From contig CACZBC010000026.1 of the NCBI GenBank assembly GCA_902779315.1, forward strand, positions 1 through 53,327: 53,327 nucleotides of DNA, written 5' to 3'. The notes below the pieces were generated by a model. The model ran no database searches. It had not been told where the DNA came from and worked only from the letters and a program-made list of their open reading frames with translations. Each line of letters starts with the position of its first letter. The stretch's first letter is position 1. This document shows, piece by piece, positions 5,115 to 50,550 of the stretch. The DNA is from an uncultured Bacteroidales bacterium. GTDB taxonomy: Bacteria > Bacteroidota > Bacteroidia > Bacteroidales > Bacteroidaceae. The translations under genes were made by a program, and so were the position numbers.

Positions 5115-5243
5115 CAGTGACGTTTGCAATCATCTAGTGTGACGTTCGCGATTAACTAGTGTGATGTTTGCAATTTACTAGTGTGACGTTTGCGATTAAC
5201 TAGTGTGACGTTTGCAATTTACTAGTGTGACGTTTACGATTTA
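5115..5243. repeat. 22-bp tandem repeat array A
   Basis: Five full 22-bp units run from 5134 to 5243, after a partial unit beginning CAGTGACGTTTGC at 5114-5115. The unit is CTAGTGTGACGTTTGC followed by six bases that alternate between RATTTA and GATTAA types. Each unit carries the palindrome ACTAGT at its junction. The array lies between the 3' end of xerD and the promoter of the lrp operon. The rest of the 4924-5271 gap shows no gene. Confidence 0.9.
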
Positions 5244-5271
5244 ACTACGCCACATTTTCTGGGCTCCCGTT

Positions 5272-6231
5272 TCAGTCCTTGATGTTCCTGGGGTGATGCT
5301 CCAGAATCTCCTGTCGGAGGTGGCTCTTGTCGATGTGCATATAGATCTCGGTTGTGCCGATATCTTCGTGTCCGAGCATGGCTTGGATGGCTCGCAGATT
5401 GGCCCCTCCCTCCAAGAGCTGCGTGGCAAAACTGTGGCGGAAGGTGTGTGGGCTGATGTTCTTCTTGATTCCCGCTTTCTCGGCATACTCTTTAATATAT
5501 ACGAAGAGCGATATCCTGCTGAGGTGTTTGCCTCGCCGAAGCGAGATGAAGACGTAGTCGTCCTCGCCAGGCTTTACTGCGACGCCTTGTCGGACAACGA
5601 ACCATTGCCGCAACTTCTGGATGGCATTCTCGCCGATGGGAACCAGTCTTTCCTTCCTTCCCTTGCCATGAACTCGGATGTATCCCTCTTCGAGATAGAG
5701 CTCGCTCAACTTCAAGTTCACCAACTCGCTGATTCTGAGGCCACAACTGAACAGGACTTCTATGATGGCGAGGTCGCGGATGCCTTCAGGTTTGCTCAGG
5801 TCTATCGCGGCTTCTATCGCGTCAATTTCAGGCAGACTCAGCACTTCAGGCAGGTGTTTGCCTATTTTCGGACTCTCGAGCAACTCTGTGGGGTCGGTCT
5901 CAATCTCTTTCTCGATAGTCAGGAAACGGTAGAACGAACGGACTCCGCTCAGGATTCGAGCTACGGATCGAGGTCCCACGCCAAGTTCCTGCAGCGTCTT
6001 CGCGAACTTGTCCAACTGCTCGAGTGTGACCTTGCGGAAGTCGATGCCCTCGTCCGTATAGTAGTTGAGGAGCTTCTGGAGGTCCTTGAGATAGGCGTCG
6101 AGGGTGTTCGCAGTGTACGAACGCTCAAGCCGCAGATATTGGAAGTAACGGCGAATAATGGCGTTGCCAATCGTGCCAGTATTTGTTAATTCGTAATGCA
6201 AAATCTCTTTCTTAACGTATTTTTTATGCAA
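5272..6231 (-). CDS. xerD: Tyrosine recombinase XerD-like
   Basis: A site-specific recombinase of 319 residues, near the usual 300 for XerC/XerD, which resolves chromosome dimers. The N-terminal SAM-like domain covers about residues 25-115 (IRRYFQYLRLERSYTANTL). The catalytic domain holds the RKR..H-R-H/W-Y set: CGLRISELVNL, HGKGRKERLVP, HTFRHSFAT, LGHEDIGTTEIYMHID with the nucleophile Tyr. It stands alone, divergent from aroQ, without mobile-element neighbours, which favours a housekeeping Xer enzyme. The first 20 or so residues may be an over-long start. Confidence 0.87.
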   Translation of the reverse strand: MHKKYVKKEILHYELTNTGTIGNAIIRRYFQYLRLERSYTANTLDAYLKDLQKLLNYYTDEGIDFRKVTLEQLDKFAKTLQELGVGPRSVARILSGVRSFYRFLTIEKEIETDPTELLESPKIGKHLPEVLSLPEIDAIEAAIDLSKPEGIRDLAIIEVLFSCGLRISELVNLKLSELYLEEGYIRVHGKGRKERLVPIGENAIQKLRQWFVVRQGVAVKPGEDDYVFISLRRGKHLSRISLFVYIKEYAEKAGIKKNISPHTFRHSFATQLLEGGANLRAIQAMLGHEDIGTTEIYMHIDKSHLRQEILEHHPRNIKD

Positions 6232-6260
6232 TGTTCTTGCAAGATAACGGGATTTATTAT

Positions 6261-6268
6261 TATCTTTG
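6261..6268 (+). promoter_or_regulatory. Promoter -7 box for aroQ
   Basis: TATCTTTG, with a TTG about 21 nt upstream (6237-6239), in the Bacteroidetes -33/-7 arrangement. It lies 44 nt before the aroQ ATG and rules out longer in-frame starts upstream at 6196. Confidence 0.7.
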
Positions 6269-6312
6269 TAGCAACAACTAAAGCTTTTCGACTACAAAAA
6301 TACAACTTTATT

Positions 6313-6753
6313 ATGAGAATTCAAATTATAAACGGCCCAAATCTTAATCTTTTGGGCATTCGCGAGCCTGAAATCTATGGCAAACGCGCTTGGGAAGACT
6401 ACCTGAAGGAACTGCGTGCACGATTCCCCAAGGTACGCATCGATTACTTCCAGAGCAACCTGGAAGGCGAAATCATCAACATGATCCACGAGGTCGGCTT
6501 CGACCGTGACGGCATCGTACTTAATGCAGGAGCATACACTCACACCAGCATCGCCATCCTCGATGCCCTGAGAAGTGTGAGCACGCCCACAGTCGAAGTG
6601 CACATCAGCAACGTCTATCAGCGCGAGGAATTCCGCCGTCGCAGCATCATCAGCCCAGGTTGCGTAGGCTTCGTAGGCGGCTTCGGACTCGACAGCTACC
6701 GCCTTGCCATCGAGGCATTGATAGACAACGCAGATCGCGACAAAGCAGAGTAA
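6313..6753 (+). CDS. aroQ: Type II 3-dehydroquinate dehydratase
   Basis: Third step of the shikimate pathway: 3-dehydroquinate to 3-dehydroshikimate, by the dodecameric type II enzyme. The start at 6313 gives 146 residues opening MRIQIINGPNLNLLGIREPE, the classic N-terminus. An in-frame start at 6196 would add 39 hydrophobic residues and precede the promoter, so I reject it. The catalytic Tyr (EIYG), NAGAYTHTS, VEVHISNVYQREEFR and the terminal GFGLDSYRLAI are all present. The stop codon is followed at once by the ATG of the methyltransferase. Confidence 0.96.
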   Translation: MRIQIINGPNLNLLGIREPEIYGKRAWEDYLKELRARFPKVRIDYFQSNLEGEIINMIHEVGFDRDGIVLNAGAYTHTSIAILDALRSVSTPTVEVHISNVYQREEFRRRSIISPGCVGFVGGFGLDSYRLAIEALIDNADRDKAE

Positions 6754-7380
6754 ATGACCCTCGACGAGTATATCCTTCAGCACATCGATGCCGAAGGAGA
6801 TTATCTGCATGCCCTTTGGCGTGACACACAGCTGCGTCTTTCTTACGGACAGATGGCGAGTGGTCATCTGCAAGGACGCCTTTTGAAGATGCTCGTCGAG
6901 ATGGTGAAGCCGTTGAAAGTGCTCGAGTTGGGTACTTTCAGCGGCTATGCCACTTTATGTATGGCAGAGGGTTTGGGCGAGAAGGCAGAGATACATACCT
7001 TCGAAGTGTTCGACGAGAACGAGGATTTCCTCAGAAAATGGTTCGAGGGAAGTGCCTGTCGGGACAAGATCCACCTTCACATCGGCGATGCTCTGCAGCT
7101 TGTCCCACAGATGCAGGAGCGTTGGGACTTCGCCTTTATTGATGCCGACAAGCGCGAATATGTGGCTTACTACGAGATGCTACTGCCCTTGATGAATCCT
7201 GGAGGCTTTATCATTGCCGACAATACCCTGTGGTATGGGCATGTTTTGGAACATCCAAAAGATAGCGACATGCAGACGAAAGGCGTTCAGGCCTTCAATG
7301 ATTTGGTCGCCAAGGACAGTCGCGTCGAGAAAGTCATACTGCCTCTTCGCGACGGACTCACTATCATTCGAGTGAAGTAG
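6754..7380 (+). CDS. SAM-dependent O-methyltransferase, CCoAOMT-like
   Basis: A 208-residue class I methyltransferase of the catechol/caffeoyl-CoA O-methyltransferase family. Motif I is LELGTFSGYATLCMAEGL, followed by EVFDENEDFLRK. The acidic metal-binding segment is WDFAFIDADKREYVAYY, and GGFIIADNTLW completes the divalent-cation site. Its ATG abuts the aroQ stop codon, so the two are cotranscribed. The substrate cannot be deduced. Its last 17 nt overlap, tail to tail, the end of the small lipoprotein gene on the other strand. Confidence 0.9.
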   Translation: MTLDEYILQHIDAEGDYLHALWRDTQLRLSYGQMASGHLQGRLLKMLVEMVKPLKVLELGTFSGYATLCMAEGLGEKAEIHTFEVFDENEDFLRKWFEGSACRDKIHLHIGDALQLVPQMQERWDFAFIDADKREYVAYYEMLLPLMNPGGFIIADNTLWYGHVLEHPKDSDMQTKGVQAFNDLVAKDSRVEKVILPLRDGLTIIRVK

Positions 7381-7609
7381 GAGGGTCTACTTTCTGCACT
7401 TTCTCAACCTTGACTGGAGGTCCTCCATAGAGAACTCTCACTCTGTCAATGGGTTGTTTCTTGTCGACGATTCCTGGAGGAGGTCCGTAAAGCTCCACCG
7501 TTCCGTCTCCTTTCTGAATTTTCTTGGCTGTCTTGCATGCTGCGAAGCCCAACAAGGTGATGAGCGAGCCCAGCATTAACCGCCAGAATGAACGAATTTT
7601 CCTAGCCAT
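7364..7609 (-). CDS. Small lipoprotein of a radical SAM/lipoprotein pair
   Basis: An 81-residue lipoprotein. A hydrophobic signal (residues 11-24) ends GFAAC with lipidated C25, followed by a basic spacer. The mature part contains two copies of an aromatic-glycine-proline element, YGPPP at Y41 and YGGPP at Y61, each after a V-x-L stretch. It starts 27 nt after the radical SAM gene stop. I recall this combination as the rSAM/lipoprotein system described only by protein-family models in Bacteroidetes (TIGR04134 beside TIGR04133). The lipoprotein is a plausible substrate, with the YG[PG]PP elements as candidate modification sites; that is inference. No function is known to me. Confidence 0.72.
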   Translation of the reverse strand: MARKIRSFWRLMLGSLITLLGFAACKTAKKIQKGDGTVELYGPPPGIVDKKQPIDRVRVLYGGPPVKVEKVQKVDPPTSLE

Positions 7610-7636
7610 CTTTTTATTTTCTACATTTCTTGTTTT

Positions 7637-8713
7637 CTAATTCTCCATTTTCTTCATGTGGCAGAGCAACAGTTTGCCTTCATCGTCCCTGAGGTGCATG
7701 CCGCCTCCTTCGCAGTAGCGCCAGTATTTGCAGTCTTCGCAATCGTCCGTTTTCATCCATTTGTGATTGCGATGGGGCTGGAAACGATGCTCCCAAACAT
7801 CCATGAAGTCGTCTTCGTAGATGTTTCCCTGCCTGTAATTCGACCTGATGCTTGTGCAAGCGCTGATGCCTCCATCGACGAGGACGGAAGCCACTGTGAT
7901 GCCTGCCACACAGCGAAACATCCAGTCGCGAACTTCTCCTTCGTAGGGCCCGAGGAAGCCTTCGCAGCCGTAGGAAGCGTGAATCCGGCCTTCCTCTCGT
8001 GTCTCGCGAATGAAGTCGAGCAGCCCCCGGAGTTGTTCTCCCGTGAGTTGCAGGTCTTTGTCCTGAGCCCCTCTGCCAACAGGAAAGATGGTGGCGAGTC
8101 GCCAATCCGTGACGCCTTTGCCGATGAGGAATTCTTTGAGCTGAGGCAGGGTGTCGTAGTTGTGTTGGTGTACGCAGGTCATCACGTCGTAGACGAGTGA
8201 CGGATCGCGCACTATCATGTCGATTGCCTGGCTGGCCATGCGGAAACAACCGGGGTTTCGACGCAGCCAGGTATGTTGTTCCTCCAGTCCGTCCAGGCTG
8301 ATTGTAATGGAGCAGAGGCCTGCATCCTTCAGTTTGAAGAGCATTTCTGGCGTGAGATAGAGTCCGTTTGTCACCATTCCCCAGGGGAAACCTCGAGTGG
8401 AAATGCCTTTCGCACACTCCACAACGTCCTCTCTTACAAGGGGTTCGCCTCCGCCAAGGATGACGAAGACCTTGCCTGGGTCTCGTTTCGCAGCGACATT
8501 GTCCAGCACCCTGAAGAAGTCTTCTTTGGGCATATCGGGCACAGAGGAAGCTTGTCGGCAATCGCTTCCACAGTGGCGGCAATGGATGTTGCAGCGAACG
8601 GTACTCTCCCAGAAGAGTTGTCTGAGGGGATGTTCCTGCTTGAGGCTATTGTTCAGGAGTCTGGAGGCCTCGAGCGCCAAAGTCCGTCTTATGCCCAACT
8701 TCTTGCTTTTCAT
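7637..8713 (-). CDS. Radical SAM enzyme with SPASM-like C-terminus (rSAM/lipoprotein system)
   Basis: 358 residues. The radical SAM cluster motif C41-x3-C45-x2-C48 sits in VRCNIHCRHC, followed by GGGEPLVRED (SAM contact), TNGLYL and ITISLDGLEE. The C-terminal 90 residues carry several cysteines: CEGFLG, FRCVAG, SACTSIRSN and CEDCKYWRYCEGGG. They resemble a SPASM auxiliary-cluster domain as in peptide-modifying enzymes. It is upstream of, and probably cotranscribed with, the small lipoprotein. Peptide modification is inferred from domain type and neighbour. Assignment to TIGR04133 is from memory and needs an HMM check. Confidence 0.82.
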   Translation of the reverse strand: MKSKKLGIRRTLALEASRLLNNSLKQEHPLRQLFWESTVRCNIHCRHCGSDCRQASSVPDMPKEDFFRVLDNVAAKRDPGKVFVILGGGEPLVREDVVECAKGISTRGFPWGMVTNGLYLTPEMLFKLKDAGLCSITISLDGLEEQHTWLRRNPGCFRMASQAIDMIVRDPSLVYDVMTCVHQHNYDTLPQLKEFLIGKGVTDWRLATIFPVGRGAQDKDLQLTGEQLRGLLDFIRETREEGRIHASYGCEGFLGPYEGEVRDWMFRCVAGITVASVLVDGGISACTSIRSNYRQGNIYEDDFMDVWEHRFQPHRNHKWMKTDDCEDCKYWRYCEGGGMHLRDDEGKLLLCHMKKMEN

Positions 8714-8792
8714 GTCGCAAATATACGAATAAAATGATTATGTGGTTGCATGCGTTAAGTTTTTTTTATGTATTTTTCGTTTCACGACTACA

Positions 8793-8913
8793 GAGACGAT
8801 GGCAATCGTATAGTGTGACGTTTGCGATTTACTAGTGTGACGTTTGTGATTTACTAGTGTGACGTTTGCGATTTACTAGTGTGATGTTTGCGTTTTACTA
8901 GTGCCACGTTTTG
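8793..8913. repeat. 22-bp tandem repeat array B
   Basis: Begins with the end motif GACGATGGCAATCGTATAG (8796-8814) and continues with 22-bp units at 8810, 8832, 8854 and 8876, ending with a truncated unit CTAGTGCCACGTTTTG at 8898. The units match CTAGTGTGACGTTTGC plus GATTTA or GTTTTA. It sits downstream of the Hsp20 terminator and upstream of the radical SAM gene. Confidence 0.9.
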
Positions 8914-8923
8914 AAACGAAAAA

Positions 8924-8951
8924 GGAGCAGCGCCCCGAGGGATGCTGCTCC
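8924..8951 (-). terminator. Terminator of the Hsp20 gene
   Basis: GGAGCAGC (8924-8931) pairs with GCTGCTCC (8944-8951). On the minus strand the hairpin is followed by a T-rich run (complement of GAAACGAAAAA). It lies 24 nt beyond the Hsp20 stop codon. Confidence 0.75.
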
Positions 8952-8974
8952 GTTGTCTTGGATGCTATGCTGCG

Positions 8975-9400
8975 TTAAGAAACTTCGATAGCCTTGCTGA
9001 TTTTTTTCTCTTCCTTCACCATCTTAGGCATTGTGACGGTCAGGATGCCGTCCTCAACCTTAGCGGAGATCTTGTCGCGCTCAACATCATCTGGCAGCGT
9101 GTAGTTCTGTTCGTAGTTCGAGTACGAGAACTCGCGCCTCAAGTAGTGATGCTTCTTGTCCTCGTGCTTGTGTTCGCACTTGTTCTCAATGGCGATGGCC
9201 AGGTTGCCGTCCTCGTTGATGTTCACACGGCAGTACTCCTTCTTGATGCCAGGAGCTGCGAGCTCCATCGTGTAAGCCTCTTCACTCTCTTTCACGTTGA
9301 CTGCCGGAGCTGTACTGCCAGTTCGAGGCATAAGATCTGTGTTCAGGAAATCTTCAAACAACGTTGGCATCCAATTGTTTCTAAACATTACTGGTAACAT
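8975..9400 (-). CDS. Hsp20/alpha-crystallin small heat-shock protein
   Basis: A small ATP-independent chaperone that holds unfolding proteins. With the start at 9400 it has 141 residues: a short N-terminal arm with NWMPTLFEDF, an alpha-crystallin domain (about 35-130) with ESEEAYTMELAAPGIKKEY, LPDDVERDKISAKVEDGILTV, and a C-terminal KKISKAIEV tail with an IxI/V-like anchor. An in-frame ATG at 9406 has the Shine-Dalgarno only one base away, whereas AGGAGGT is 7 nt from the 9400 ATG, so 9400 is preferred. A canonical Shine-Dalgarno is rare in this phylum. Confidence 0.9.
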   Translation of the reverse strand: MLPVMFRNNWMPTLFEDFLNTDLMPRTGSTAPAVNVKESEEAYTMELAAPGIKKEYCRVNINEDGNLAIAIENKCEHKHEDKKHHYLRREFSYSNYEQNYTLPDDVERDKISAKVEDGILTVTMPKMVKEEKKISKAIEVS

Positions 9401-9407
9401 AATCATA

Positions 9408-9414
9408 CCTCCTA
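9408..9414 (-). promoter_or_regulatory. Strong Shine-Dalgarno of the Hsp20 gene
   Basis: AGGAGGT on the minus strand, complementary to the 16S anti-SD, 7 nt before the ATG at 9400. None of the other start regions I inspected in the window shows a comparable site. Confidence 0.7.
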
Positions 9415-9512
9415 ATTATATTTTTGGTTAAACATTTCACCTAAACATAAACAAGAGGTGTGCCAACCAGAAATGTGACCAGAATGCGGACAAACGGCGA
9501 CAAAAAGTCATG

Positions 9513-10442
9513 TCAAATTGACAAAGCCCGCCTGCCAAAGAAGAAACGCGAGATGCCTACAAGGTCCATCAGACGGGCTATCAAGAGGCTTCCCATCACG
9601 CAAAAGGCGAGGGAGACTGCCAGGAAAAGCAAGCCAGTAGGATCGAACTTGAGGTAGGGGACGAACTGCTTGCACAGAACCGTGAAGATGGGCGAGAAGA
9701 CGTAGAGCATCAGGCTGTTACGGCCCAGGAAGAGGAAGGCCTGGTGCAGCCTTTCGGGCAAATGTCTGTAGATGGAAAGCAGGGAGGAAATGGCGAAAAA
9801 GGTAATCAGGGCTCCGTTCAGACTTGCCTGGTTGGGATTCTCTGAGAAGCAGGCCAGTAAGGCGAAGACGATGACGGAAAGCCTTGTAGGCAGGAAGAAA
9901 GTCAGGAAATTCGTGCCGCTCTGGCGAAGAACGGCTCCTGCCAGGAAATACAGGGAAGACGAAAACGACAGGATGCCAAAGCCGTGAGCAAACACACAAT
10001 AGGCGATACCAATCAGGATGAAACGAGTCGCCATCCCTCGCTCCACATTATTATATATAAAATAGTACAGGGCTCCGCAAATGATGATTGCGTGCAAGTA
10101 CCAATACGGGCCAAGAGGATGCAGGAAAAGGTGCTTGAGATAAACCCAAGTAGTGAGGTGTTCGATGTGCTCATTAATGGGAAGAATCGAAGCCATATAG
10201 ATGTATCCGCTCTCCATGACGACATACGGAACCGCCAACCAAAGGAGAGTCTTCAGGAAATCCTTGGGTTCCTTCGAGATGTTCATCAGGTAACCCGATA
10301 TGAGCAGGAAGCCAGGCATGTGGAAGGAGTACACCACCTGCTTGATGTCGGGGTGAAGCTGCTCGAACCACACCAAGTGGAAACTGATGACGAGCAGTAT
10401 CAGAATGCCCTTCAGAAAGTCTATTTCCTTGATTCGTGGCAT
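9513..10442 (-). CDS. Membrane acyltransferase (acyltransferase family 3)
   Basis: 309 residues, very hydrophobic, with about ten membrane segments. The opening RIKEIDFLKGILILLVISFHL is the family's typical first helix, with the conserved His at its end. SFHMPGFLLISGYLM follows at the second helix, and PYWYLHAIIICGALYYF lies near residue 115. Members O-acylate cell-surface glycans, lipids or periplasmic sugars in the inner membrane. The substrate here is unknown. It stands alone, divergent from the alpha-galactosidase gene, and no glycan-synthesis genes are adjacent. Confidence 0.85.
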   Translation of the reverse strand: MPRIKEIDFLKGILILLVISFHLVWFEQLHPDIKQVVYSFHMPGFLLISGYLMNISKEPKDFLKTLLWLAVPYVVMESGYIYMASILPINEHIEHLTTWVYLKHLFLHPLGPYWYLHAIIICGALYYFIYNNVERGMATRFILIGIAYCVFAHGFGILSFSSSLYFLAGAVLRQSGTNFLTFFLPTRLSVIVFALLACFSENPNQASLNGALITFFAISSLLSIYRHLPERLHQAFLFLGRNSLMLYVFSPIFTVLCKQFVPYLKFDPTGLLFLAVSLAFCVMGSLLIARLMDLVGISRFFFGRRALSI

Positions 10443-10509
10443 AGGGGCTTTACTTTTGTTTCTTCAGTCCTTCGATGGCACTTCTTCATAAAACAATCTT
10501 TATTTGCCA

Positions 10510-10517
10510 CAAAGGTA
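10510..10517 (-). promoter_or_regulatory. Promoter -7 box of the acyltransferase gene
   Basis: TACCTTTG on the minus strand, 68 nt before the start codon, matching TAnnTTTG. Confidence 0.6.
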
Positions 10518-10521
10518 CGAA

Positions 10522-10558
10522 AAATAGTTCATAGTTCATAGTTCATAGTTCATAATTA
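10522..10558. repeat. 9-bp simple tandem repeat
   Basis: Four copies of a TTCATAGTT/TTCATAATT nonamer lie between the divergent promoters of the acyltransferase and GH36 genes. A related run lies at 46469-46498. It looks like slippage-prone filler; copy number could affect promoter spacing. Confidence 0.7.
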
Positions 10559-10563
10559 TTTAC

Positions 10564-10571
10564 TATCTTTG
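10564..10571 (+). promoter_or_regulatory. Promoter -7 box of the GH36/GH43 unit
   Basis: TATCTTTG, 28 nt before the GH36 start codon. No clear TTTG -33 element is seen, because the 9-bp repeat occupies that position. Confidence 0.65.
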
Positions 10572-10599
10572 CAGAAGAATCCACACAAAACACGATATT

Positions 10600-14865: not shown

Positions 14866-14929
14866 GGCTGAGAGCCGCAAACGCCCCAGTGAAGATTGCA
14901 TGCGTACACACGTCGAAGTTGGCCGACAT

Positions 14930-15084
14930 CGCGTGTGTCGTTTGCGATTTACTAGTGTGTCGTTTGCGATTTACTAGTGTGACGTTTGCAATTTACTAGT
15001 GTGACGTTTGGCATTTTAGCGTGCCAAGTTGTTACAATTAACGTGCTGAAAAAGACAATTTAACGTGTCACGATTGCCATTTTT
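14930..15084. repeat. 22-bp tandem repeat array C with decayed tail
   Basis: Four good units from 14930 (CTAGTGTGTCGTTTGC and CTAGTGTGACGTTTGC types) are followed by three diverged 22-bp units to about 15084, in which TTAACGTG replaces CTAGTGTG. Upstream is CCCCAGTGAAGATTGC (14884-14899), which also borders array D. The array follows the GH43 gene. Confidence 0.85.
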
Positions 15085-15377
15085 GCATGTAAAAGTGGCT
15101 GCTTAATGCAAAAATCCTTCCAAATGAGGCCTTCAGGCTGATTTTTTCCGACAGGCAAATGTGCCTCCAGAATAGGAAAAAGCATCGGAAAGAGGGGTTT
15201 ATTCCCTACTTTTGTGGCATTTTTAGCAGGATTTTGACGTGTTTTCTGTCTTTTTTGAGGCTCGACATCTTAGGGGCAGAAGCCTTACTGATATCGTATC
15301 TCATTGTAAATCTGCTTTTTAGATGAAATTAAACTTAATCGAGCGTTACAGTTACAGTTGTTACAGTTGAAAATTAG

Positions 15378-15452
15378 ATACCCCTTTTCTCCTTTATATA
15401 CTATATAACTGATTATATATTAATTACTTATAAAGTCTTTAGAAAGGGGTAT
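15378..15452. repeat. AT-rich stretch bounded by 10-bp inverted repeats
   Basis: ATACCCCTTT (15378-15387) and AAAGGGGTAT (15443-15452) are perfect inverted copies around 55 nt of almost pure A/T. Upstream are tandem GTTACAGTT copies (15347-15370), and downstream TTGGAAC repeats (15471-15495). The remainder of the 14866-15628 gap holds no gene I can support. Function unknown; a remnant of a mobile or replication region is possible. Confidence 0.6.
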
Positions 15453-15570
15453 AGGTACTTATTTTTTTAATTGGAACTGGAACAATTGGAACGCTTAGCC
15501 TTTAACACTTACTCTTCCTCTCCAAGGCCTCTTAGAGATGACAATCTCATCACGAGAAGTTGTTGCACAA

Positions 15571-20073: not shown

Positions 20074-20215
20074 CCCCAGTGAAGATTGCCAACGTCACAC
20101 TAGTAAATCGTAAACGTCACACTAGTAAATTGCAATCGTCACACTAGTAAATCGCCAACGTCGCACTAGTAAATTCCAAACGTCACACTATACAAATGCA
20201 ATCGTCGCATAAGTA
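20074..20215. repeat. 22-bp tandem repeat array D, inverted orientation
   Basis: Six units read AACGTCACACTAGTAAAT plus four bases on the plus strand, the reverse of arrays A-C. The left border is CCCCAGTGAAGATTGCC, shared with array C. The right end is CACTATACAAATGCAATCG, the reverse of the end motif of array B. It lies between the xylose operon promoter and the tRNA-Asn terminator. The 19924-20255 gap has no gene. Confidence 0.9.
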
Positions 20216-20230
20216 AAAAGAAAACAAAAA

Positions 20231-20254
20231 AAGCCCGAATCTCTTCGGGCTTTG
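20231..20254 (-). terminator. Terminator of the tRNA-Asn unit
   Basis: Perfect 10-bp stem AAAGCCCGAA / TTCGGGCTTT with a TCTC loop. On the minus strand it is followed by a T-rich run. Confidence 0.9.
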
Positions 20255-20255
20255 C

Positions 20256-20329
20256 GCTTCAGGATGGGCTTGAACCAACGACCCCATGATTAACAGTCAT
20301 GTGCTCTAACCAACTGAGCTACTGAAGCA
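20256..20329 (-). tRNA. tRNA-Asn(GTT), copy 2
   Basis: Minus-strand cloverleaf of about 74 nt. The acceptor stem GCTTCAG/CTGAAGC spans 20323-20329 and 20257-20263, with discriminator G. The D arm is GCTC..GAGC, the anticodon stem CATGA/TCATG with loop CTGTTAA (anticodon GTT), and the T loop TTCAAGC. The 3' CCA is not encoded. Identical to the copy at 20357. Confidence 0.95.
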
Positions 20330-20356
20330 GGTTTGCAACTGCTCGGAAAAACTCTG

Positions 20357-20430
20357 CGCTTCAGGATGGGCTTGAACCAACGACCCCATGATTAACAGTC
20401 ATGTGCTCTAACCAACTGAGCTACTGAAGC
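20357..20430 (-). tRNA. tRNA-Asn(GTT), copy 1
   Basis: Same sequence as the gene 101 bp away, with the same stems and GTT anticodon. It is nearest the promoter at 20463, so both are probably processed from one transcript that ends at 20231. The CCA end is not encoded. Confidence 0.95.
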
Positions 20431-20462
20431 AGTTTTTTTCGCTTTTTCTCGCAATTGCGGGG

Positions 20463-29730: not shown

Positions 29731-29949
29731 TGTAAGATTGCACATACGTGTTAAAAAGTCAATATTAATCTTGTGTTTTCGGATGTAAAAGTAACGTAAA
29801 GCATGCAAATGACCAAATTCCAGTGAACTTTTTTTCATATTTTCCGACTCTTTGAAAACTCGCGTCTCGTTTTTTGCTTGTCCAATTTACCTGATTTGTT
29901 CAATCGTTGCTGATTCCCGTGCTACAAACGCCTCCTGCCAAAATCAAAA

Positions 29950-30030
29950 ACGTCACGTTTGATGTTTGCCATCATCACACTAGATGTTTGCCAACGTCAC
30001 ACTAGATGTTTGCCAACGTCACTAGCGTCA
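29950..30030. repeat. 22-bp tandem repeat array E
   Basis: Three units of GATGTTTGCCAACGTCAC plus ACTA (22 bp), preceded by CGTCACGTTTGATG, a segment shared with array G. It ends CACTAGCGTC. It sits between the promoter regions of the small peptide (minus) and der (plus), just inside the right 23-bp inverted repeat. Apart from this and the der promoter the 29731-30179 gap shows nothing. Confidence 0.8.
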
Positions 30031-36174: not shown

Positions 36175-36966
36175 ATGGAAGAACAGGAAAGACTGCAGCT
36201 CAGAAGTGAAGGTTTGGTTAAGATATATGGCAAACGAATGGTGGTGAACAACGTCACTTTCGACGTTCGTCAGGGTGAGATTGTGGGCCTTCTCGGACCT
36301 AATGGAGCGGGCAAAACGACCTCTTTCTATATGACGACGGGCTTGGTCCTTCCCAACGACGGCCACATTTTCTTGGGTGACGAGGAGATTACGGATTTGC
36401 CTGTCTACAAGAGAGCTCGTCTCGGCATCGGTTATCTGGCGCAAGAGGCAAGTGTTTTCCGTAAGATGAGCGTCGAAGACAACATTTCCTGTGTGCTGGA
36501 AATGACGGATAAACCGAAGGAGGAGCAGCGCGAGAAGCTGGAAAGCCTGATTCAGGAGTTCCACCTCGAAAAGGTGCGAAAGAGTTTGGGCGACCAGTTG
36601 AGTGGTGGTGAAAGACGTCGAACAGAGATTGCTCGCTGCCTTGCTATCGACCCGAAGTTCATCATGCTGGACGAACCCTTTGCCGGCGTCGACCCGATTG
36701 CCGTTGAGGACATACAATATATCGTGTGGAAGCTGAAACAGAGGAACATAGGTGTCCTCATCACGGACCACAATGTGGAGGAAACGCTCTGCATTACCGA
36801 TCGCGCTTATCTGCTGTTCGAGGGGCAGATCCTCTTCCATGGAACACCTCAGGAACTGAGTGTCAACCCCATCGTTCTCGACAAGTATCTGACTCGCAAC
36901 TTCGTGCTGAGATTCAAGGACTTCCAGCAAATGGAGGAGCAACGAACGGCAGGTTCGAAATCGTGA
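36175..36966 (+). CDS. lptB: LPS export ABC transporter ATP-binding protein LptB
   Basis: 263 residues. It powers extraction of LPS from the inner membrane with LptF/LptG. The N-terminal [21 protein letters not shown] and [16 protein letters not shown] (Walker A) are typical. [20 protein letters not shown] is a hallmark of LptB, followed by [16 protein letters not shown] (signature), [15 protein letters not shown] (Walker B) and [10 protein letters not shown] (H-loop). It is translated right after the MlaF-type ATPase, so lipid and LPS traffic genes share one transcript. Confidence 0.94.
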
Positions 36967-37030
36967 CACTATACGATTGCAAACGTCACACTAGTTAAAT
37001 GCAAACGTCACTAAGGTCGTTTCGAAACGA
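36963..37030. repeat. 22-bp repeat array F, short
   Basis: Starts GTGACACTATACGATTGC (the inverse of the array B end motif), then one full unit AAACGTCACACTAGTTAAAT, then AACGTCACTAAGGTCG and an inverted GTCGTTTCGAAACGAC. It begins at the lptB stop and ends 50 nt before the next start. Confidence 0.8.
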
Positions 37031-40411: not shown

Positions 40412-40414
40412 TCT

Positions 40415-41703: not shown

Positions 41704-41731
41704 TCTTTAGCTTCTTCTTATTACCACCTAA

Positions 41732-43909: not shown

Positions 43910-43940
43910 GAAATCCGCCCTACAAGACATCTTCCGACAA

Positions 43941-44032
43941 CTGCAGTGACGATGGCAAACTTCACGTTTGATGTTTGCCATCGTCACGTGTGACGTTTGG
44001 CATCGTCACTGGGGTCGTCTTCTAACGACCTT
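43941..44032. repeat. Array G: 22-bp family copy forming a hairpin
   Basis: GTGACGATGGCAAAC (43946-43960) and GTTTGCCATCGTCAC (43973-43987) are perfect inverted copies with a 12-nt loop. A unit GTGTGACGTTTGGCATCGTC follows, then CACTGGGGTCG with the inverted end GTCG..CGAC. It starts 32 nt after the recQ stop. The rest of the 43910-44308 gap holds only the downstream promoter and a GC/AT alternating leader. Confidence 0.8.
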
Positions 44033-44221: not shown

Positions 44222-44308
44222 CAGCCGGTTTATCAATTCGCGCGTATTATGCGCGTATGTAAAAGTGTCAATAAAGTAATAAAATAAAAACATTAAACTT
44301 AAAACAAT

Positions 44309-46468
44309 ATGAAAAGAAGTAAAACTTTTCTGACGAAGGCAGCAATGCTGCTAATCGTAGCGCTCTTCAGCCTAACTGGCGCAAGGGCACAACAAACCCT
44401 ACCTTACGAGTATGGCTTTGAGAACAACAACCTGACTGCTGACGGTTGGGAATTACAAAACAGTACTCAAACACCAAGTAACGCAGGTAACGATAAGGCC
44501 ACAGGTCTTTATACTACGGTCAATTCTGTTTCTATCGCTCATAATGGCAGTTATGGTTTTCGCATCAGATATAACGATGAAGCATACCTTGTATCACCCA
44601 TATTTCCCAGCGGCTTGGGTGTTAGTGTTTCTTTTTGGTACAAAGAAAGTAATGCTATCACTTCTAGTGATGGTGATGGGAAATTCCAAGTGGGTTACAC
44701 AACAGATGCGTCAGTTACTGATGCCAGTCAATTTATTTATGGTAATGTAGAGACCGTTTCATCAACCGAATGGCTACAGTTCTCACAAATATTTCCTGCA
44801 GAAACCAAGCGCATAGCCATTAAACATATTTCCAACAATGCTTACTTCCTTTGCCTTGATGACTTTAGATTCGAGAGTGCATTGGGTCCTGTTGTCATCA
44901 ATGGTGATCCTGAACCGGAGTTCACAGGTTCAACTCATGTTACGATTACTGGCGGCGCAGAAGGTGCAACCATTCTATACAGCATCGATGAAGGCTTGTC
45001 TTGGAAGACCTACCCGTCCAATGGTTTTAATCTGGATAAAACAGCAATGGTCATTGCAAAGCAAACCAAAGACATGGAAGACGGTCCTGAGACAGAAAAG
45101 TTCTTCCTCAAATCAAGTGATAAGGTAAATTTCCTCTGGGACTTAACGAAACAGGATTATACTACAGCGACAACGGATAATGTTCATTGGACCTGTGTTG
45201 GTGCCACTATGGATCTTGCAAGAGGTAGTGGTAACAACACAACGCCAGCCAACCAATATCTTGGAGGAACAAATGGTTATAGTTATACACGTTTCTACAA
45301 TCGTCAGACTTTAACTATTAAGCCAGTTAACGGCTTCGCCATTACCTCTATTGAGATTACTGCAGCCGCTTATGTTGATAATTTAAATACTTACATGACT
45401 TTGACTAATGCGGAAAAGACTGTATCGGGATATGTTGTTACAATAACTCCAATAGATGACTCACAACCCATTGTTGCAACATTTTCAAACACTAATAGCT
45501 GGGGTCGAGAGAGACAAATTCAGGTTACTGGTGTAAATGTAAACTATTATGCAACTTCTTCTCCGTTTATTGCAATTGCAACAATGGACGAGAAAGTGAA
45601 TGTGACTACTAGTGCTACAGTTCCGACGACTACTTTAGAGACGCATTACAATAAAGTTGATGAGAGCAGCGCTGATGCAGTGCTTTGCGATGAGAATGGT
45701 AATGAAGTTAGCTATGATTGGATAACAGTAGATCTCGATGGTGATAAGAATCTGACATATAAGATTACAACTCCTAACACAACCCTCGCAGAGCGCATAG
45801 CCTATGTAAAGATTACTGGTAATAGAACTTATCCAGATAACGAAGGGAATCCAGTTGTAGTTTCTTCGCCCATCATCCAAGTGACTCAGGCAAAGCCTTA
45901 CACTGTTAAGGTTGGCCCGGTTGGCTACACAACTTATGTCGCTCCTGCTGCTGATGCAGTTTCCTTCCCCGAAGGTCTGACAGCATACATTGTATTCGAG
46001 CATAATGGAAATTATGTAAGGCTCTCCGAAAGGGCTTCTGTTCCTGCAGGTACACCTGTTGTCCTGAAGTCAGAAGAGGCAATGCAGAGTGAAAATGGCA
46101 TTGAATATGCTTTGATCATAACGACTAGCCCTGAGAACGTCGACGATAACCTGCTCAAAGCATCTAAAGTAGATTTTGCTCCTACAGAAAGTCATACCAT
46201 CTATTGCTTGGCAAGCAAGAGCAGAGGCATAGGCTTCTATCCTGTAAAAATTGGTGTGACAGTTCCTGCTGGTAAAGCATATCTCGAGACTACTGGAGAA
46301 GCTAAGGAATTCTATGGTTTCGAGGTTGATGACGCAACTGGTATAAATGACCTTGACGTTGATGCTAACGTCGATGGTAACGACGCCATCTACAACCTGG
46401 CAGGTCAGCGCCTGCAGAAGATGCAGAAGGGCATTAACATCGTGAATGGAAAGAAGATTCTCTTCTAA
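44309..46468 (+). CDS. Secreted adhesin-like protein with sorting-like tail
   Basis: 719 residues. The signal peptide ends SLTGARAQ, with Gln as the mature N-terminus. Residues 29-190 resemble a cleaved-adhesin/MAM-like jelly roll (LPYEYGFENN, AYLVSPIFPSG, CLDDFRFES). About 195-270 looks like a chitobiase C-terminal-like strand domain (HVTITGGAEGATILYSIDEG). Further beta domains follow. The end DDATGINDL plus YNLAGQRLQKMQKGINIV and NGKKILF is almost identical to that of the LRR protein at 25187, a likely type IX secretion-type sorting tail. The gene looks more AT-rich than its recQ neighbour. The W..EW peptide gene follows after 40 nt. Confidence 0.75.
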   Translation: MKRSKTFLTKAAMLLIVALFSLTGARAQQTLPYEYGFENNNLTADGWELQNSTQTPSNAGNDKATGLYTTVNSVSIAHNGSYGFRIRYNDEAYLVSPIFPSGLGVSVSFWYKESNAITSSDGDGKFQVGYTTDASVTDASQFIYGNVETVSSTEWLQFSQIFPAETKRIAIKHISNNAYFLCLDDFRFESALGPVVINGDPEPEFTGSTHVTITGGAEGATILYSIDEGLSWKTYPSNGFNLDKTAMVIAKQTKDMEDGPETEKFFLKSSDKVNFLWDLTKQDYTTATTDNVHWTCVGATMDLARGSGNNTTPANQYLGGTNGYSYTRFYNRQTLTIKPVNGFAITSIEITAAAYVDNLNTYMTLTNAEKTVSGYVVTITPIDDSQPIVATFSNTNSWGRERQIQVTGVNVNYYATSSPFIAIATMDEKVNVTTSATVPTTTLETHYNKVDESSADAVLCDENGNEVSYDWITVDLDGDKNLTYKITTPNTTLAERIAYVKITGNRTYPDNEGNPVVVSSPIIQVTQAKPYTVKVGPVGYTTYVAPAADAVSFPEGLTAYIVFEHNGNYVRLSERASVPAGTPVVLKSEEAMQSENGIEYALIITTSPENVDDNLLKASKVDFAPTESHTIYCLASKSRGIGFYPVKIGVTVPAGKAYLETTGEAKEFYGFEVDDATGINDLDVDANVDGNDAIYNLAGQRLQKMQKGINIVNGKKILF

Positions 46469-46498
46469 TTCATAATTCATAGTTCATAATTCATAATT
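46469..46498. repeat. 9-bp simple tandem repeat
   Basis: TTCATAATT/TTCATAGTT nonamers, the same simple repeat as at 10522-10558, fill the spacer between the adhesin-like gene and the small peptide gene. Confidence 0.7.
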
Positions 46499-46508
46499 AC
46501 GAAAGACA

Positions 46509-46697
46509 ATGAAAAAGACATATATAATTCCTGAAGCGCTGATTGTTGAGCTTGGAACCTGCAAAATGATGGCAGAGTCATTGCCTGTTGTTGGTGATGA
46601 GGAGATTGAGAATCCTGACGAAATCTTGACGAAGGAGCTCCAAGGAGGCAAAAGTAGCCAAGGCGGCGGCAAGAGCGTCTGGGACGATGAATGGTAA
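46509..46697 (+). CDS. Small acidic peptide with WDDEW tail
   Basis: 62 residues. The N-terminal leader-like block is KKTYIIPEALIVELGTCKM, then MAESLPVVGDEE, an acidic middle, a GGKSSQGGGKS stretch and terminal VWDDEW. It matches the peptide at 29521 in its first 20 residues and last five. No signal peptide. It follows a gene for a secreted protein with a sorting-like tail and is closed by the terminator at 46750, so the two are probably cotranscribed. Function unknown. Confidence 0.75.
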   Translation: MKKTYIIPEALIVELGTCKMMAESLPVVGDEEIENPDEILTKELQGGKSSQGGGKSVWDDEW

Positions 46698-46749
46698 TTT
46701 AACCCTAACCTTAACGTTAACAAGGAAATAGGGAAATAACAGATAAGAG

Positions 46750-46781
46750 CAGCCCGCTTGGCAGTAATGTCAGGCGGGTTG
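46750..46781 (+). terminator. Terminator after the WDDEW peptide
   Basis: CAGCCCGC pairs with GCGGGTTG, continued by TGGCA/TGTCA around a GTAA loop, then a T-rich run. Confidence 0.8.
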
Positions 46782-46817
46782 CTTGTTCTTAGACGCAGGC
46801 AGTTATGTTGCCCAACT

Positions 46818-46900
46818 TAACGTGGAGTGTTTGCAAATTTAACGTGGAGCGTAGGCCGATGCTCCACGTTAAGTTTGCGTTTACTCCATGGAGCATCAGA
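46818..46900. repeat. Diverged 22-bp repeat locus I
   Basis: TTAACGTGGAGTGTTTGC and TTAACGTGGAGCG start 22 bp apart (TAACGTGGAG at 46818 and 46840). An inverted copy GCTCCACGTTAAGTTTGCG follows, then ACTCCATGGAGC. The spacing and the GTTTGCAAATTTA part match the CTAG-type repeats, and TTAACGTG also occurs in the decayed tail of array C. Confidence 0.6.
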
Positions 46901-46941
46901 CCCTCCTCCTAGAGGAAGATGACTGAATAAATCTTTTTTGT

Positions 46942-47099
46942 AAAACACTCGTCACTCATCATCTTCCTGCCTTAAATGTATGATTGTAAGTCTGTTGCAG
47001 GGTGATGAGTGGGTGATGACTCATCATCAACTCATCACCCATGTATTTTCTTATGAGTCAGCGTCTTAAGAGGGGTTGGTGACGAGTGACGAGTGTTTT
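46942..47099. mobile_element. MITE-like inverted-repeat element
   Basis: AAAACACTCGTCACTC (46942-46957) and its exact inverse (47084-47099) bound about 160 bp with no gene. Inside, GGGTGATGAGT (47000-47010) pairs with ACTCATCACCC (47030-47040), and GATGAGT-type motifs recur on both strands. The form suits a non-autonomous transposon remnant or a large RNA fold. No target-site duplication was confirmed. Confidence 0.5.
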
Positions 47100-47227
47100 T
47101 GATTTTCTCCCGATTATTGACCGTTAACGATAACCTTAACACACATACATTGCGCAGAGGCAGGGAATGCATCCTTTGCCTCTGTGCTTTTTCTTTGTGA
47201 ATGTTTTGTCGTTTCGGAAAGAAATCG

Positions 47228-47235
47228 TAACTTTG
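47228..47235 (+). promoter_or_regulatory. Promoter of the mntA-hepT pair
   Basis: TAACTTTG with TTTTG at 47204-47208 (19-nt spacing), 31 nt before the ATG at 47266. It rules out the in-frame ATG at 47167. Confidence 0.7.
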
Positions 47236-47265
47236 CAGCAGAAAACGTGGCAAATAGATGTCAAA

Positions 47266-47559
47266 ATGAAAACGAAGACAGAAATATTGCGTTTGCTGAA
47301 ACTATACAAACCTATAGCAAAGAGCAAATATGGTCTGACCCGCATAGGAATCTTCGGTTCTGTGGCTCGTGGTGAACAGACAGAGCATAGCGACGTGGAC
47401 GTTTGCTATGATGGACGTGTACCCTCTCTGTTGACGATTGACCGCATTCAGAGCGATTTGGAACAGATGTTTGATTGCCATGTTGATCTGGTGCGAATCC
47501 GTAAGGATGTGAATAGCCTGTTGCAACAACGCATAAAGAAGGAGGGGCTCTATGTATGA
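47266..47559 (+). CDS. mntA: MntA-type minimal nucleotidyltransferase antitoxin
   Basis: 97 residues from the ATG at 47266. The minimal nucleotidyltransferase signature GS-x10-D-x-D is exact: G31-S32 (GSVARGEQTEHS) then D43 and D45. The partner gene overlaps by 8 nt. In characterised type VII pairs MntA adenylylates a Tyr near the HEPN toxin active site and silences it. The family and the partner make this assignment strong. Confidence 0.9.
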   Translation: MKTKTEILRLLKLYKPIAKSKYGLTRIGIFGSVARGEQTEHSDVDVCYDGRVPSLLTIDRIQSDLEQMFDCHVDLVRIRKDVNSLLQQRIKKEGLYV

Positions 47560-47923
47560 CCTAAGGATAGCAGAGGATATCTTGCAAAAAATCAGTTGTG
47601 CAATAGACACAATTACGGAACGCGCATCCGCTGTCAAGAATCCTAATGATTTATTGTGTTCTCCGAATGGAATGATGCGTTTGGATGCTATATGCATGAA
47701 CCTGATAGCTTTAGGTGAGGCTATCAAAGGGCTTGACAAGCAGACGCATGGAGAATTGCTTCCTCAATACCCGGAAATGTATTGGAGTGGCGTTATGCGA
47801 ATGCGTGACAAGATTGCTCACCATTATTTTGAGATTGATGCCGACGTCGTTTTTCGTACTGTACAAGAAGACATTCCCCAGTTGAAGAAGGTTATTGACA
47901 AGATGATTGCTGACATGAAATAA
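47552..47923 (+). CDS. hepT: HepT-like HEPN ribonuclease toxin
   Basis: 123 residues, DUF86/HEPN fold. The active-site motif R-x4-H-x-Y reads R85-DKIA-H90-H-Y92 in MRMRDKIAHHYFEID. Y92 is the expected target of AMPylation by MntA, so the pair looks intact. The helical N-terminal half has ITERASAV and GEAIKGLDK. It would cleave RNA when released from MntA. Transcription ends at the strong hairpin 42 nt downstream. Confidence 0.9.
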   Translation: MYDLRIAEDILQKISCAIDTITERASAVKNPNDLLCSPNGMMRLDAICMNLIALGEAIKGLDKQTHGELLPQYPEMYWSGVMRMRDKIAHHYFEIDADVVFRTVQEDIPQLKKVIDKMIADMK

Positions 47924-47964
47924 TTCTCTCGAACAGCAGTAAATAGAAACTAAATAAAATAATA

Positions 47965-47994
47965 AAGCCCCCTGCAATTTCTTGCAGGGGGCTT
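47965..47994. terminator. Strong bidirectional terminator
   Basis: AAGCCCCCTGCAA / TTGCAGGGGGCTT, perfect 13-bp stem with a TTTC loop, between convergent hepT and kbl. Confidence 0.92.
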
Positions 47995-48015
47995 CTTTGT
48001 TATTTGCCTTGATTA

Positions 48016-48063
48016 GCTATCACTTCAGTACGCCGTAGGGAAGACCTTGGCATGCTGATGCTA

Positions 48064-48079
<16 letters not shown>
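48016..48079. repeat. 20-bp direct duplication at the kbl 3' end
   Basis: GCTATCACTTCAGTACGCCG occurs at 48016-48035 and again at 48060-48079. The second copy is the end of kbl (last codons and stop), and the first is a spare copy 44 bp downstream. It looks like a remnant of a small tandem duplication. Confidence 0.85.
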
Positions 48080-49251
<1,172 letters not shown>

Positions 49252-49313
49252 TGTATATAAGGTTATAAGGTTAATAGTTGAGTCGGTTATGAGGTTTTGT
49301 TTTATTTGTTATG

Positions 49314-49321
49314 CAAAATTA
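49314..49321 (-). promoter_or_regulatory. Promoter -7 box of kbl
   Basis: TAATTTTG on the minus strand, 63 nt before the kbl start, back to back with the tdh promoter. Confidence 0.5.
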
Positions 49322-49365
49322 CAAAATTATTATGAATATTGAACGACTTATTATGAAATATTTTG

Positions 49366-49373
49366 TATCTTTG
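49366..49373 (+). promoter_or_regulatory. Promoter -7 box of tdh
   Basis: TATCTTTG, 33 nt before the ATG at 49407. In-frame ATGs at 49311-49355 lie upstream of it. Confidence 0.7.
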
Positions 49374-49406
49374 CATGAGCAAAAACTAAAACCACTAAAT
49401 ACACGA

Positions 49407-50360
49407 ATGAAAAACATACTGATTATTGGCTCAACAGGACAGATTGGTTCTGAGCTAACGATGCACCTCAGAGGTATTTACGGCAACGACCACGTTGTGG
49501 CTGGCTACATTCCCGGAGCAGAGCCGAAGGGCGAACTGCTGGAGAGCGGTCCCTGTGCCCTTGCCGACGTCATCAAGGCGGAGAGTATTGCTGAGGCTGT
49601 GAAGAAGTACAACATCGACGCCATCTACAACCTTGCGGCTCTGCTGTCTGTTGTGGCAGAGTCGAAGCCCCGTTTGGCGTGGAACATCGGCATCGACGGA
49701 CTTTGGAACATCCTGGAGATTGCTCGCGAGAACAAGTGCGCTGTGTTCACTCCCAGCTCTATCGGGTCGTTCGGACTCGAGACGCCTCACGATATGACGC
49801 CTCAGGATACTGTTCAACGTCCTCGCACCATCTATGGTGTTTCGAAGGTGACGACTGAGTTGCTCTCCGACTGGTACTTCCACAAGTACGGCGTCGATAC
49901 GCGCAGTGTCCGTTTCCCGGGCATCATCTCCTACGTCACACCTCCAGGTGGCGGCACTACCGACTATGCTGTCGACATCTACTACTATGCCGTTCGTGGC
50001 GAACGCTTTACCTGTCCCATCAAGGCAGGCACACACATGGACATGATGTATATGCCCGACGCTCTCCACGCAGCACAGATGCTGATGGAGGCTGACCCGT
50101 CGCGTCTCGTCCATCGCAACGGCTTCAACATCGCAGCGATGAGTTTCGATCCCGAAATGATCTACCAGAACATCAAGAAGTACAAGCCCGAGTTCGAGAT
50201 GGTCTATGACGTCGATCCGCTCAAACAGTCGATTGCAGAGTCGTGGCCCAACTTGATGGATGACTCTTGCGCCCGTAAGGAATGGGACTGGGAGCATAAG
50301 TACGGCCTCGAGGAAATGACCAAAGACATGCTCGAGAAACTCGCGAAGAAACTTCTGTAA
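49407..50360 (+). CDS. tdh: L-threonine 3-dehydrogenase, epimerase-type SDR
   Basis: Oxidises L-threonine to 2-amino-3-oxobutyrate with NAD. 317 residues from the ATG at 49407 (MKNILIIGSTGQIGSEL), short-chain dehydrogenase of the GalE-like TDH type rather than the zinc-dependent MDR type. The NAD motif is GSTGQIG, the catalytic Ser lies in TPSSIGSFG, and the Tyr-Lys pair in IYGVSKVTTE. RFPGIIS and GGTTDYAVDIYYYAV are typical of this TDH group. Pairing with kbl supports the substrate assignment. Confidence 0.92.
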   Translation: MKNILIIGSTGQIGSELTMHLRGIYGNDHVVAGYIPGAEPKGELLESGPCALADVIKAESIAEAVKKYNIDAIYNLAALLSVVAESKPRLAWNIGIDGLWNILEIARENKCAVFTPSSIGSFGLETPHDMTPQDTVQRPRTIYGVSKVTTELLSDWYFHKYGVDTRSVRFPGIISYVTPPGGGTTDYAVDIYYYAVRGERFTCPIKAGTHMDMMYMPDALHAAQMLMEADPSRLVHRNGFNIAAMSFDPEMIYQNIKKYKPEFEMVYDVDPLKQSIAESWPNLMDDSCARKEWDWEHKYGLEEMTKDMLEKLAKKLL

Positions 50361-50397
50361 GCGAGACATCAAACCCTTCCAAAAGGCTGATAAATAA

Positions 50398-50433
50398 AGA
50401 GAGCGTGCCACGTTTTTTGACGTGGCACGCTCT
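50398..50433. terminator. Bidirectional terminator between tdh and lpdA
   Basis: AGAGCGTGCCACG / CGTGGCACGCTCT, perfect 13-bp stem around a T-rich loop. Confidence 0.9.
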
Positions 50434-50440
50434 TGTTCTA

Positions 50441-50550
50441 AACATCACACGTGACGTTGCCAAACGTCACACTTGATCTTTGCAATCGTCAAACGTGAAG
50501 TTTGCTTTTTACCCACGTGACGTTTGCCAACGACACTGCAGTCGTTTCAA
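50441..50550. repeat. 22-bp repeat array H, diverged
   Basis: Contains AACATCACACGTGACG, AAACGTCACACTTGATC, GCAATCGTCAAACGTG and CCACGTGACGTTTGCC at roughly 22-bp spacing, ending CACTGCAGTCGTTTC like the array G and F ends. It lies between the terminator and the lpdA stop codon, touching the gene end. Confidence 0.7.

What the first reader, a model, noticed from the sequence alone, without database searches (positions are those of the whole stretch)
5115..50550. Dispersed family of 22-bp tandem repeats in intergenic regions
At least eight intergenic sites (5.1, 8.8, 14.9, 20.1, 30.0, 37.0, 43.9 and 50.5 kb) carry arrays built on a 22-bp unit, CTAGTGTGACGTTTGC plus six A/T-rich bases, with one to six units each and in either orientation. 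Units vary at a few fixed positions. All but one site lie directly downstream of a gene; array E lies between divergent promoters. 22 bp is close to two helical turns, so a protein could bind each unit on the same face of DNA. Such density (one per 6-7 kb) implies many copies genome-wide if the window is typical. I know of no described family with this sequence.
Basis: seen in the sequence. Interest (0 to 1): 0.8.

Follow-up and report, generated by a model that had tools for sequence, protein, structure and literature searches.

The report
22-bp palindromic repeat arrays after genes
In a group of rumen bacteria, short 22-letter DNA repeats sit just after many genes, and related species often keep the places and the 22-letter spacing while using entirely different, mostly palindromic sequences; what makes or uses them is not known.

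Summary
The 16-mer has 24 near-matches in the window against 0.35 expected, and 542 in the genome against 1 for a reversed control. In 453 kb of own sequence 45 of 49 arrays lie between called genes, usually just after stop codons. The CTAGTG unit is frequent in only three sampled species. Related species carry 22-bp arrays of unrelated, often palindromic units (GGTTAACC, TACATGTA, GCTCC-GT-GGAGC, CCGC-GT-GCGG). Period 22 gives 83 segments in 0.99 Mb of congeners and 0 in 326 kb of other families, but only 13 in 374 kb fetched blind, where periods 21 and 24 give 6 and 7: dense in the window's clade, sparse elsewhere in the genus. At orthologous sites the array is kept (19 of 22 relatives' sequences; 0 of 53 at array-free sites) while its sequence is often replaced. 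No RNA strand asymmetry, no Rfam match, no Y1 transposase found in the three heavy carriers. Best reading: REP/BIME-like DNA-level repeats evolving like satellite DNA, register set by an unidentified machinery. Mechanism is inferred.

The parts
5117..5247 (+). Array of about 6 units, CTAG type, 3' of the xerD-like gene (5272-6231, minus strand)
   Evidence: integrase domain; 348/326/304 bp intergenic region in G000/G100/G098
8811..8911 (+). Array of about 4.6 units, CTAG type, 3' of the HSP20 gene (8975-9406, minus strand)
   Evidence: relatives G098, G100, G008 have TTAACGTG-type units at this site
14877..15011 (+). Array, CTAG type with divergent outer units, between convergent genes
20085..20217 (-). 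Array of about 6 units beyond the terminator of two tRNA-Asn genes
   Evidence: terminator read by eye
29949..30022 (-). Array of about 3.4 units between divergent genes (upstream of der/engA)
36949..37018 (-). Short array overlapping the end of the gene 36175-36966
   Evidence: 113/157/223 bp intergenic region in G000/G098/G100
43943..44030 (+). Array with mixed orientation, CACGTG and CTTCAC types, 3' of recQ
   Evidence: orthologues
46814..46901 (.). Ninth array, of another type (TTAACGTGGAGCGTAGGCC)
   Evidence: read by eye; automatic score 24 of 36, below the threshold of 25
50433..50528 (-). Array of mixed units between convergent genes, next to a bidirectional terminator

Best explanation
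These are non-coding, DNA-level repeat elements of a REP/BIME-like kind: short tandem arrays of a 22-bp unit, in many species an imperfect palindrome, usually just beyond gene 3' ends. Shown: dispersal; the same 22-bp period with unrelated unit sequences; palindromy in more than half of the congener arrays tested; sites largely kept while the sequence is replaced; unit-number change mostly in 22-bp steps; no RNA strand asymmetry. Inferred: units are gained and lost by slippage or unequal recombination; a successful unit type, here CTAGTGTGACGTTTGC, spreads to other existing arrays by recombination or by insertion into them, so old arrays act as safe landing places; a protein or recombinase acting on two helical turns (two dyads 11 bp apart) fixes the 22-bp register. 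The mode of evolution resembles eukaryotic satellite-DNA libraries (recalled comparison).
For: 542 units genome-wide against 1 reversed control. Period 22: 42 segments in 453 kb own, 83 in 0.99 Mb of congeners, 0 in 326 kb of other Bacteroidales families. 49 of 82 congener arrays more self-complementary than column permutations at p<=0.05, about 4 expected. Array kept at 19 of 22 relatives' sequences, 0 of 53 at array-free sites. Different families at the same site: recQ, lpd and xerD, 8.5 and 36.97 kb. Register: 133 spacings are multiples of 22, 3 true departures by my reading. 22-bp steps in 6 of 8 length comparisons with G098/G100, and between G005 and G123 at xerD (238 and 260 bp). Strand symmetry p 0.42 and 0.65.
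Against: No enzyme, protein or insertion event was found. In 27 stretches fetched blind period 22 gives only 13 segments in 374 kb, against 6 for 21 and 7 for 24, and some of the 13 look coding. The own dominant unit is mostly not palindromic (13 of 42 own arrays at p<=0.05), so palindromy is not required. Two of 8 length steps (+23, +25) are not multiples of 22. The end motif was chosen after seeing the flanks, and 8 of 98 ends also show it pointing inward. Period 22 could simply be inherited from one ancestral array. Some tests depend on a home-made gene caller.
Confidence: 0.45

Rival explanations
1. Host-functional DNA elements: the arrays are binding platforms (nucleoid protein, topoisomerase site or RNA-polymerase roadblock) that mark the ends of transcription units, and the bound sequence drifts by co-evolution.
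For: Site conservation (19 of 22 against 0 of 53); closeness to stop codons, nearer the 3' than the 5' end in 23 of 29 own and 43 of 60 congener codirectional cases; rare register departures.
Against: Several unrelated families in one genome and even at one site (G127); absent at the same site in many relatives (lpd 10 of 21, xerD 7 of 22, recQ 13 of 28 without a period-22 segment); convergent regions are preferred in the own genome only.
Confidence: 0.25
2. Purely mutational satellite: an ancestral 22-bp array was scattered long ago; slippage and hairpin-templated correction renew sequence and palindromy, and 22 is only inherited.
For: Unit-number steps, covarying arms read by eye, sites rarely gained in the small set compared (0 of 53).
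Against: About 30 register departures would be expected from the indel/substitution ratio of array-free regions (6 to 138) against 3 seen, though unit differences are not independent and indels inside the core escape the scan; the same unit type at many separate sites needs exchange between loci.
Confidence: 0.2
3. RNA elements: intrinsic terminators or 3' stabilising hairpins.
For: Placement just after stop codons; palindromes would fold as RNA.
Against: Sense and antisense folding energies do not differ (p 0.42, n 29; p 0.65, n 60); a run of four T within 25 nt after the array in 5 of 29 and 12 of 60 only; a terminator-like hairpin before the array in 2 of 29 and 13 of 60; no Rfam match.
Confidence: 0.07
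4. REPs mobilised by a REP-associated tyrosine transposase (RAYT).
For: Palindromic, intergenic, dispersed; CGTC-tagged REPs are reported in Bacteroidetes (PMC3733652, passages seen), and own units contain CGTC; 62 of 139 genomes of the genus have a Y1_Tnp match, among them array bearers such as G027, G076, G119 and G126 (RAYT not told apart from IS200-type enzymes).
Against: No Y1_Tnp match in G000, G098 or G100, the three heavy carriers (they are 79-86% complete); several other families carry no GTAG or CGTC tag (by eye).
Confidence: 0.03

Closest known systems
REP / BIME / REPIN elements (GTAG- and CGTC-tagged REPs)
   Same: Short palindromic intergenic repeats in hundreds of copies, clustered, near gene ends.
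   Different: Here units are head-to-tail at a fixed 22-bp pitch, sequence is replaced between species at the same sites, tags are not general (by eye), and no Y1 transposase was found in the heavy carriers.
Minisatellites / VNTRs
   Same: Tandem units, number differs between close relatives in unit steps.
   Different: One unit type is dispersed over many sites in one genome, and unrelated unit types share the same period.
Eukaryotic satellite DNA (comparison recalled)
   Same: Conserved unit length with fast sequence turnover and within-genome homogeneity.
   Different: Short arrays at many intergenic sites of a bacterial chromosome, not long blocks.
Plasmid iterons (recalled, e.g. 22-bp iterons of R6K)
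   Same: Direct repeats about two helical turns apart.
   Different: Many chromosomal intergenic sites, often palindromic units, no plasmid match to the one array tested.
CRISPR arrays
   Same: Regular repeats, often palindromic.
   Different: No spacers: units directly abut.

Membership tests
REP / RAYT system | Palindromic repeats dispersed between genes | tested here: met
   49 of 82 congener arrays palindromic at p<=0.05, own 13 of 42; 1 of 49 own and 1 of 100 congener arrays inside a called gene
REP / RAYT system | GTAG or CGTC tag | tested here: not met
   By eye on the families: own units contain CGTC, but units such as the GGTTAACC and TACATGTA types have neither tag
REP / RAYT system | A RAYT (Y1_Tnp) gene in the genome | tested here: not met
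   PF01797: no match in G000, G098, G100; incomplete genomes, and 62 of 139 genomes do have a match
Minisatellite / VNTR | Tandem units with number varying between close relatives | tested here: met
   xerD site 348/326/304 bp, 36.97 kb site 113/157/223 bp; strains of one species not compared
CRISPR | Repeats separated by unique spacers | tested here: not met
   Units abut at 22-bp spacing
Intrinsic terminator / RNA element | Strand-specific RNA folding and a T-tract after the hairpin | tested here: not met
   No strand asymmetry; T4 after 5 of 29 and 12 of 60 arrays; no Rfam match
Mobile element (MITE-like) | Conserved ends and filled/empty site pairs with target duplication | tested here: inconclusive
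   Outward motif CACTNNNGTCGTTT at 18 of 98 ends against 0.94 in shuffles, 8 inward, both ends in 2 of 49 arrays, motif chosen post hoc; no clean filled/empty pair seen
Protein-binding array | A protein bound to each unit | not testable with these tools
   Only indirect: constant two-turn pitch

The most novel reading that the evidence does not exclude
A bacterial machinery recognises repeat pitch and dyad symmetry (two turns of DNA, any sequence) rather than a sequence. It keeps arrays at dozens to hundreds of intergenic sites in a 22-bp register while unit sequences sweep and are replaced from species to species: a bacterial counterpart of satellite DNA, with place and form conserved but sequence not.
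Probability: 0.22. Interest if true: 0.9.

Novelty: new variant of a known kind. Interest (0 to 1): 0.68.

Why it matters
Dispersed bacterial repeats are usually defined by a shared sequence. Here the shared property is period, often with symmetry, across unrelated sequences at conserved places. If confirmed, sequence-similarity searches would miss such elements elsewhere, and two questions become testable: does a protein read two-turn repeats whatever their sequence, and do bacteria have satellite-like concerted evolution. Unit-number differences might also serve to type strains of uncultured rumen bacteria.

Tried and rejected
RAYT origin: PF01797 over 139 genomes of the genus, none in the three heavy carriers. 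Known RNA family: none in Rfam at gathering scores. Plasmids and phages: no match to one array, window 5090-5260, at E 0.001. Viral contigs: no exact match to one tandem pattern. RNA hairpin function: strand test negative. Papers: all ten searches used; searches returned nothing; no listed title or abstract start described these arrays. The library lacks most subscription papers. Seen of PMC3733652: passages; of PMC1525189 and all others: listing only.

Errors on the way: one search printed the wrong side of recQ for minus-strand loci (mended). One search used a neighbouring ORF for many lpd loci (mended). One search counted masked N runs; counts used are those. One search printed its results, then failed on saving a file; it called the 20.1 kb array divergent because tRNAs were not in the gene list.

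Full report
Observation. The genome (2.83 Mb, 107 contigs) holds 542 matches at up to 2 mismatches and 1 match to the reversed pattern. In 453 kb of own sequence (window plus 20 stretches, taken without regard to arrays although on contigs that had hits) there are 49 period-22 arrays at a permissive threshold (27 of 40), 47 of them with the core motif at up to 3 mismatches. Segment lengths run from 2.8 to 9.4 units, median 5.1. About 300 arrays per genome is my extrapolation.

Anatomy. Among 155 units within 2 mismatches of the 13-base core the consensus is AATTTACTAGTGTGACGTTTGC; the nine bases before the core are degenerate but patterned. The strong conservation of the core itself is partly by selection of those units. 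Arrays mix CTAG-type units with TATAGTGTTACG, TTAACGTGTTACG, CACGTG and GCGTGCC types. Several types are palindromic with arms that change together (CATCAC/GTGATG, CTTCAC/GTGAAG, CTTAAC/GTTAAG, GGC/GCC; by eye). In a periodic array a dyad recurs every 11 bp, so the second dyad is implied by the first. Of 161 same-strand spacings up to 70 bp, 133 are multiples of 22; the others are 25 of 7, 15, 29 or 37 bp, which I read as out-of-phase partial matches, and 45, 46 and 49. Units differ from consensus at 4.6 positions on average. Array-free intergenic regions compared with G098/G100 show 6 indel events to 138 substitutions, which would predict about 30 departures; this is rough, since unit differences are not independent and indels inside the core escape the scan.

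Context. Of 49 own arrays 45 are between called genes, 1 in a gene, 3 at stretch ends; of 100 congener arrays 92, 1 and 7. Codirectional arrays lie a median 18 bp (own, n 29) and 74 bp (congeners, n 60) after the upstream stop, nearer the 3' end in 23 of 29 and 43 of 60. The own genome has 1.27 arrays per kb in convergent, 0.66 in codirectional and 0.63 in divergent regions; congeners show no such preference (0.57, 0.67, 0.44). Genes were called by a simple codon-usage script.

Beyond one sequence. A tandem pattern of the window's type occurs in 10 of 139 genomes of the genus, own included, and often in three: G000 94, G098 47, G100 29. G098 and G100 appear to be the yak MAGs RGIG9745 and RGIG10220, because contig positions agree. 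Scanning for period instead, 24 of 42 sampled congener genomes have a segment at the permissive threshold, with units such as GGTTAACC and CTGCAGAG (G024, G012), GCTCC-GT-GGAGC (G126), CCGC-AC-GCGG (G127), AAGTAC-GT-GTACTT (G119), TACATGTA (G119, G123, G005, G035, G076). A few segments are simple or possibly coding repeats. Sampling matters: 28 segments (29 of 40) come from 13 stretches chosen by hits, 42 from 20 stretches on contigs named by earlier calls, and 13 from 27 blind stretches of 374 kb, where period 21 gives 6 and period 24 gives 7. The class is therefore dense in the window's clade (recQ identity about 86% or more) and sparse, at best, in the rest of the genus. Twenty genomes of other Bacteroidales families give 0 in 326 kb; one, G054, has two 23-bp arrays.

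Palindromy. Against in-register column permutations, 49 of 82 congener arrays (36 of 60 with stops in all frames, 13 of 22 open in some frame) are more self-complementary at p<=0.05; own 13 of 42. The CTAG unit has lost most of its symmetry.

Orthologous sites. Against six relatives, regions with an array in G000 have a period-22 segment in 19 of 22 relatives' sequences, array-free regions in 0 of 53 (threshold 25 of 36; the 36.97 kb region is counted as an array site although G000 itself scores 22). The three misses are G005 at xerD, and G036 at 8.5 and 50.4 kb. Three window array sites (14.9, 30.0, 43.95 kb) had no relative in this test. Sequence is often replaced: 3' of HSP20 G000 has CTAG units where G098, G100 and G008 have TTAACGTG units; at 36.97 kb G005 has CTGCAG and G123 CACGTG units; 3' of xerD G127 has two unrelated families side by side. 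In wider sets a period-22 segment lies 3' of xerD in 15 of 22, recQ in 15 of 28 and lpd in 11 of 21; other periods from 14 to 40 average under 0.2 with a maximum of 4. So sites are kept among close relatives and often lost or absent further out. Lengths: xerD 348, 326, 304; 8.5 kb 441, 397, 397; 36.97 kb 113, 223, 157 for G000, G100, G098; two other comparisons (+23 at 19.9 kb, +25 at 50.4 kb) are not multiples of 22. G005 and G123 differ by exactly 22 bp at xerD.

Mechanism. No RNA strand asymmetry, few T-tracts and no Rfam match favour a DNA-level element. No Y1 transposase was found in G000, G098 or G100, though 62 of 139 genomes have one. An outward end motif CACTNNNGTCGTTT is at 18 of 98 ends against 0.94 in shuffled flanks, 8 inward; it was chosen after viewing flanks, so it is only suggestive. 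I favour discrete repeat elements that expand and contract in register and exchange unit types between loci, old arrays serving as landing places; REPs are reported as targets of insertion sequences (title and abstract start of PMC1525189). What fixes the register, and whether the host uses the arrays, is open.

Novelty. REP/BIME-like in place and palindromy, but two defining features (tag, transposase) were tested and not met, so I do not file it as REP. Ten searches of the held open-licence papers listed no description.

Noticed in passing
window 20253-20436: Two tRNA-Asn genes in a 102-bp tandem duplication, 98% match, followed by a terminator and then an array.
   Followed up: no
window 46814-46901: A ninth 22-bp array of another type, resembling the GGAGCGTAGGCCGAT family of G126 (by eye).
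   Followed up: partly
L118 8225-8309 and 9625-9763: Two 23-bp arrays of one unit (CTCACAAGTTTGTCAGTTTTTA type) in G054, a genome of another Bacteroidales family; two further stretches of that genome showed none.
   Followed up: partly
window about 46303-46487 and 46930-47110: Many short matches in all six relatives searched, the first at the 3' end of the ORF 44309-46468; perhaps a shared C-terminal secretion domain (recalled idea, not tested).
   Followed up: no
window 15055-15558: Intergenic stretch with similar copies at other places in G098, G100, G123, G036-clade genomes listed, 69-97% identity.
   Followed up: no
window 10510-10573: Stretch around a 7-bp ATAGTTC repeat with many short matches in the six relatives.
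   Followed up: no
L197, L199, L200 (lpd of G119, G154, G080): lpd proteins with extra in-frame segments such as SPLRGDLEG, apparently from another dispersed repeat.
   Followed up: no
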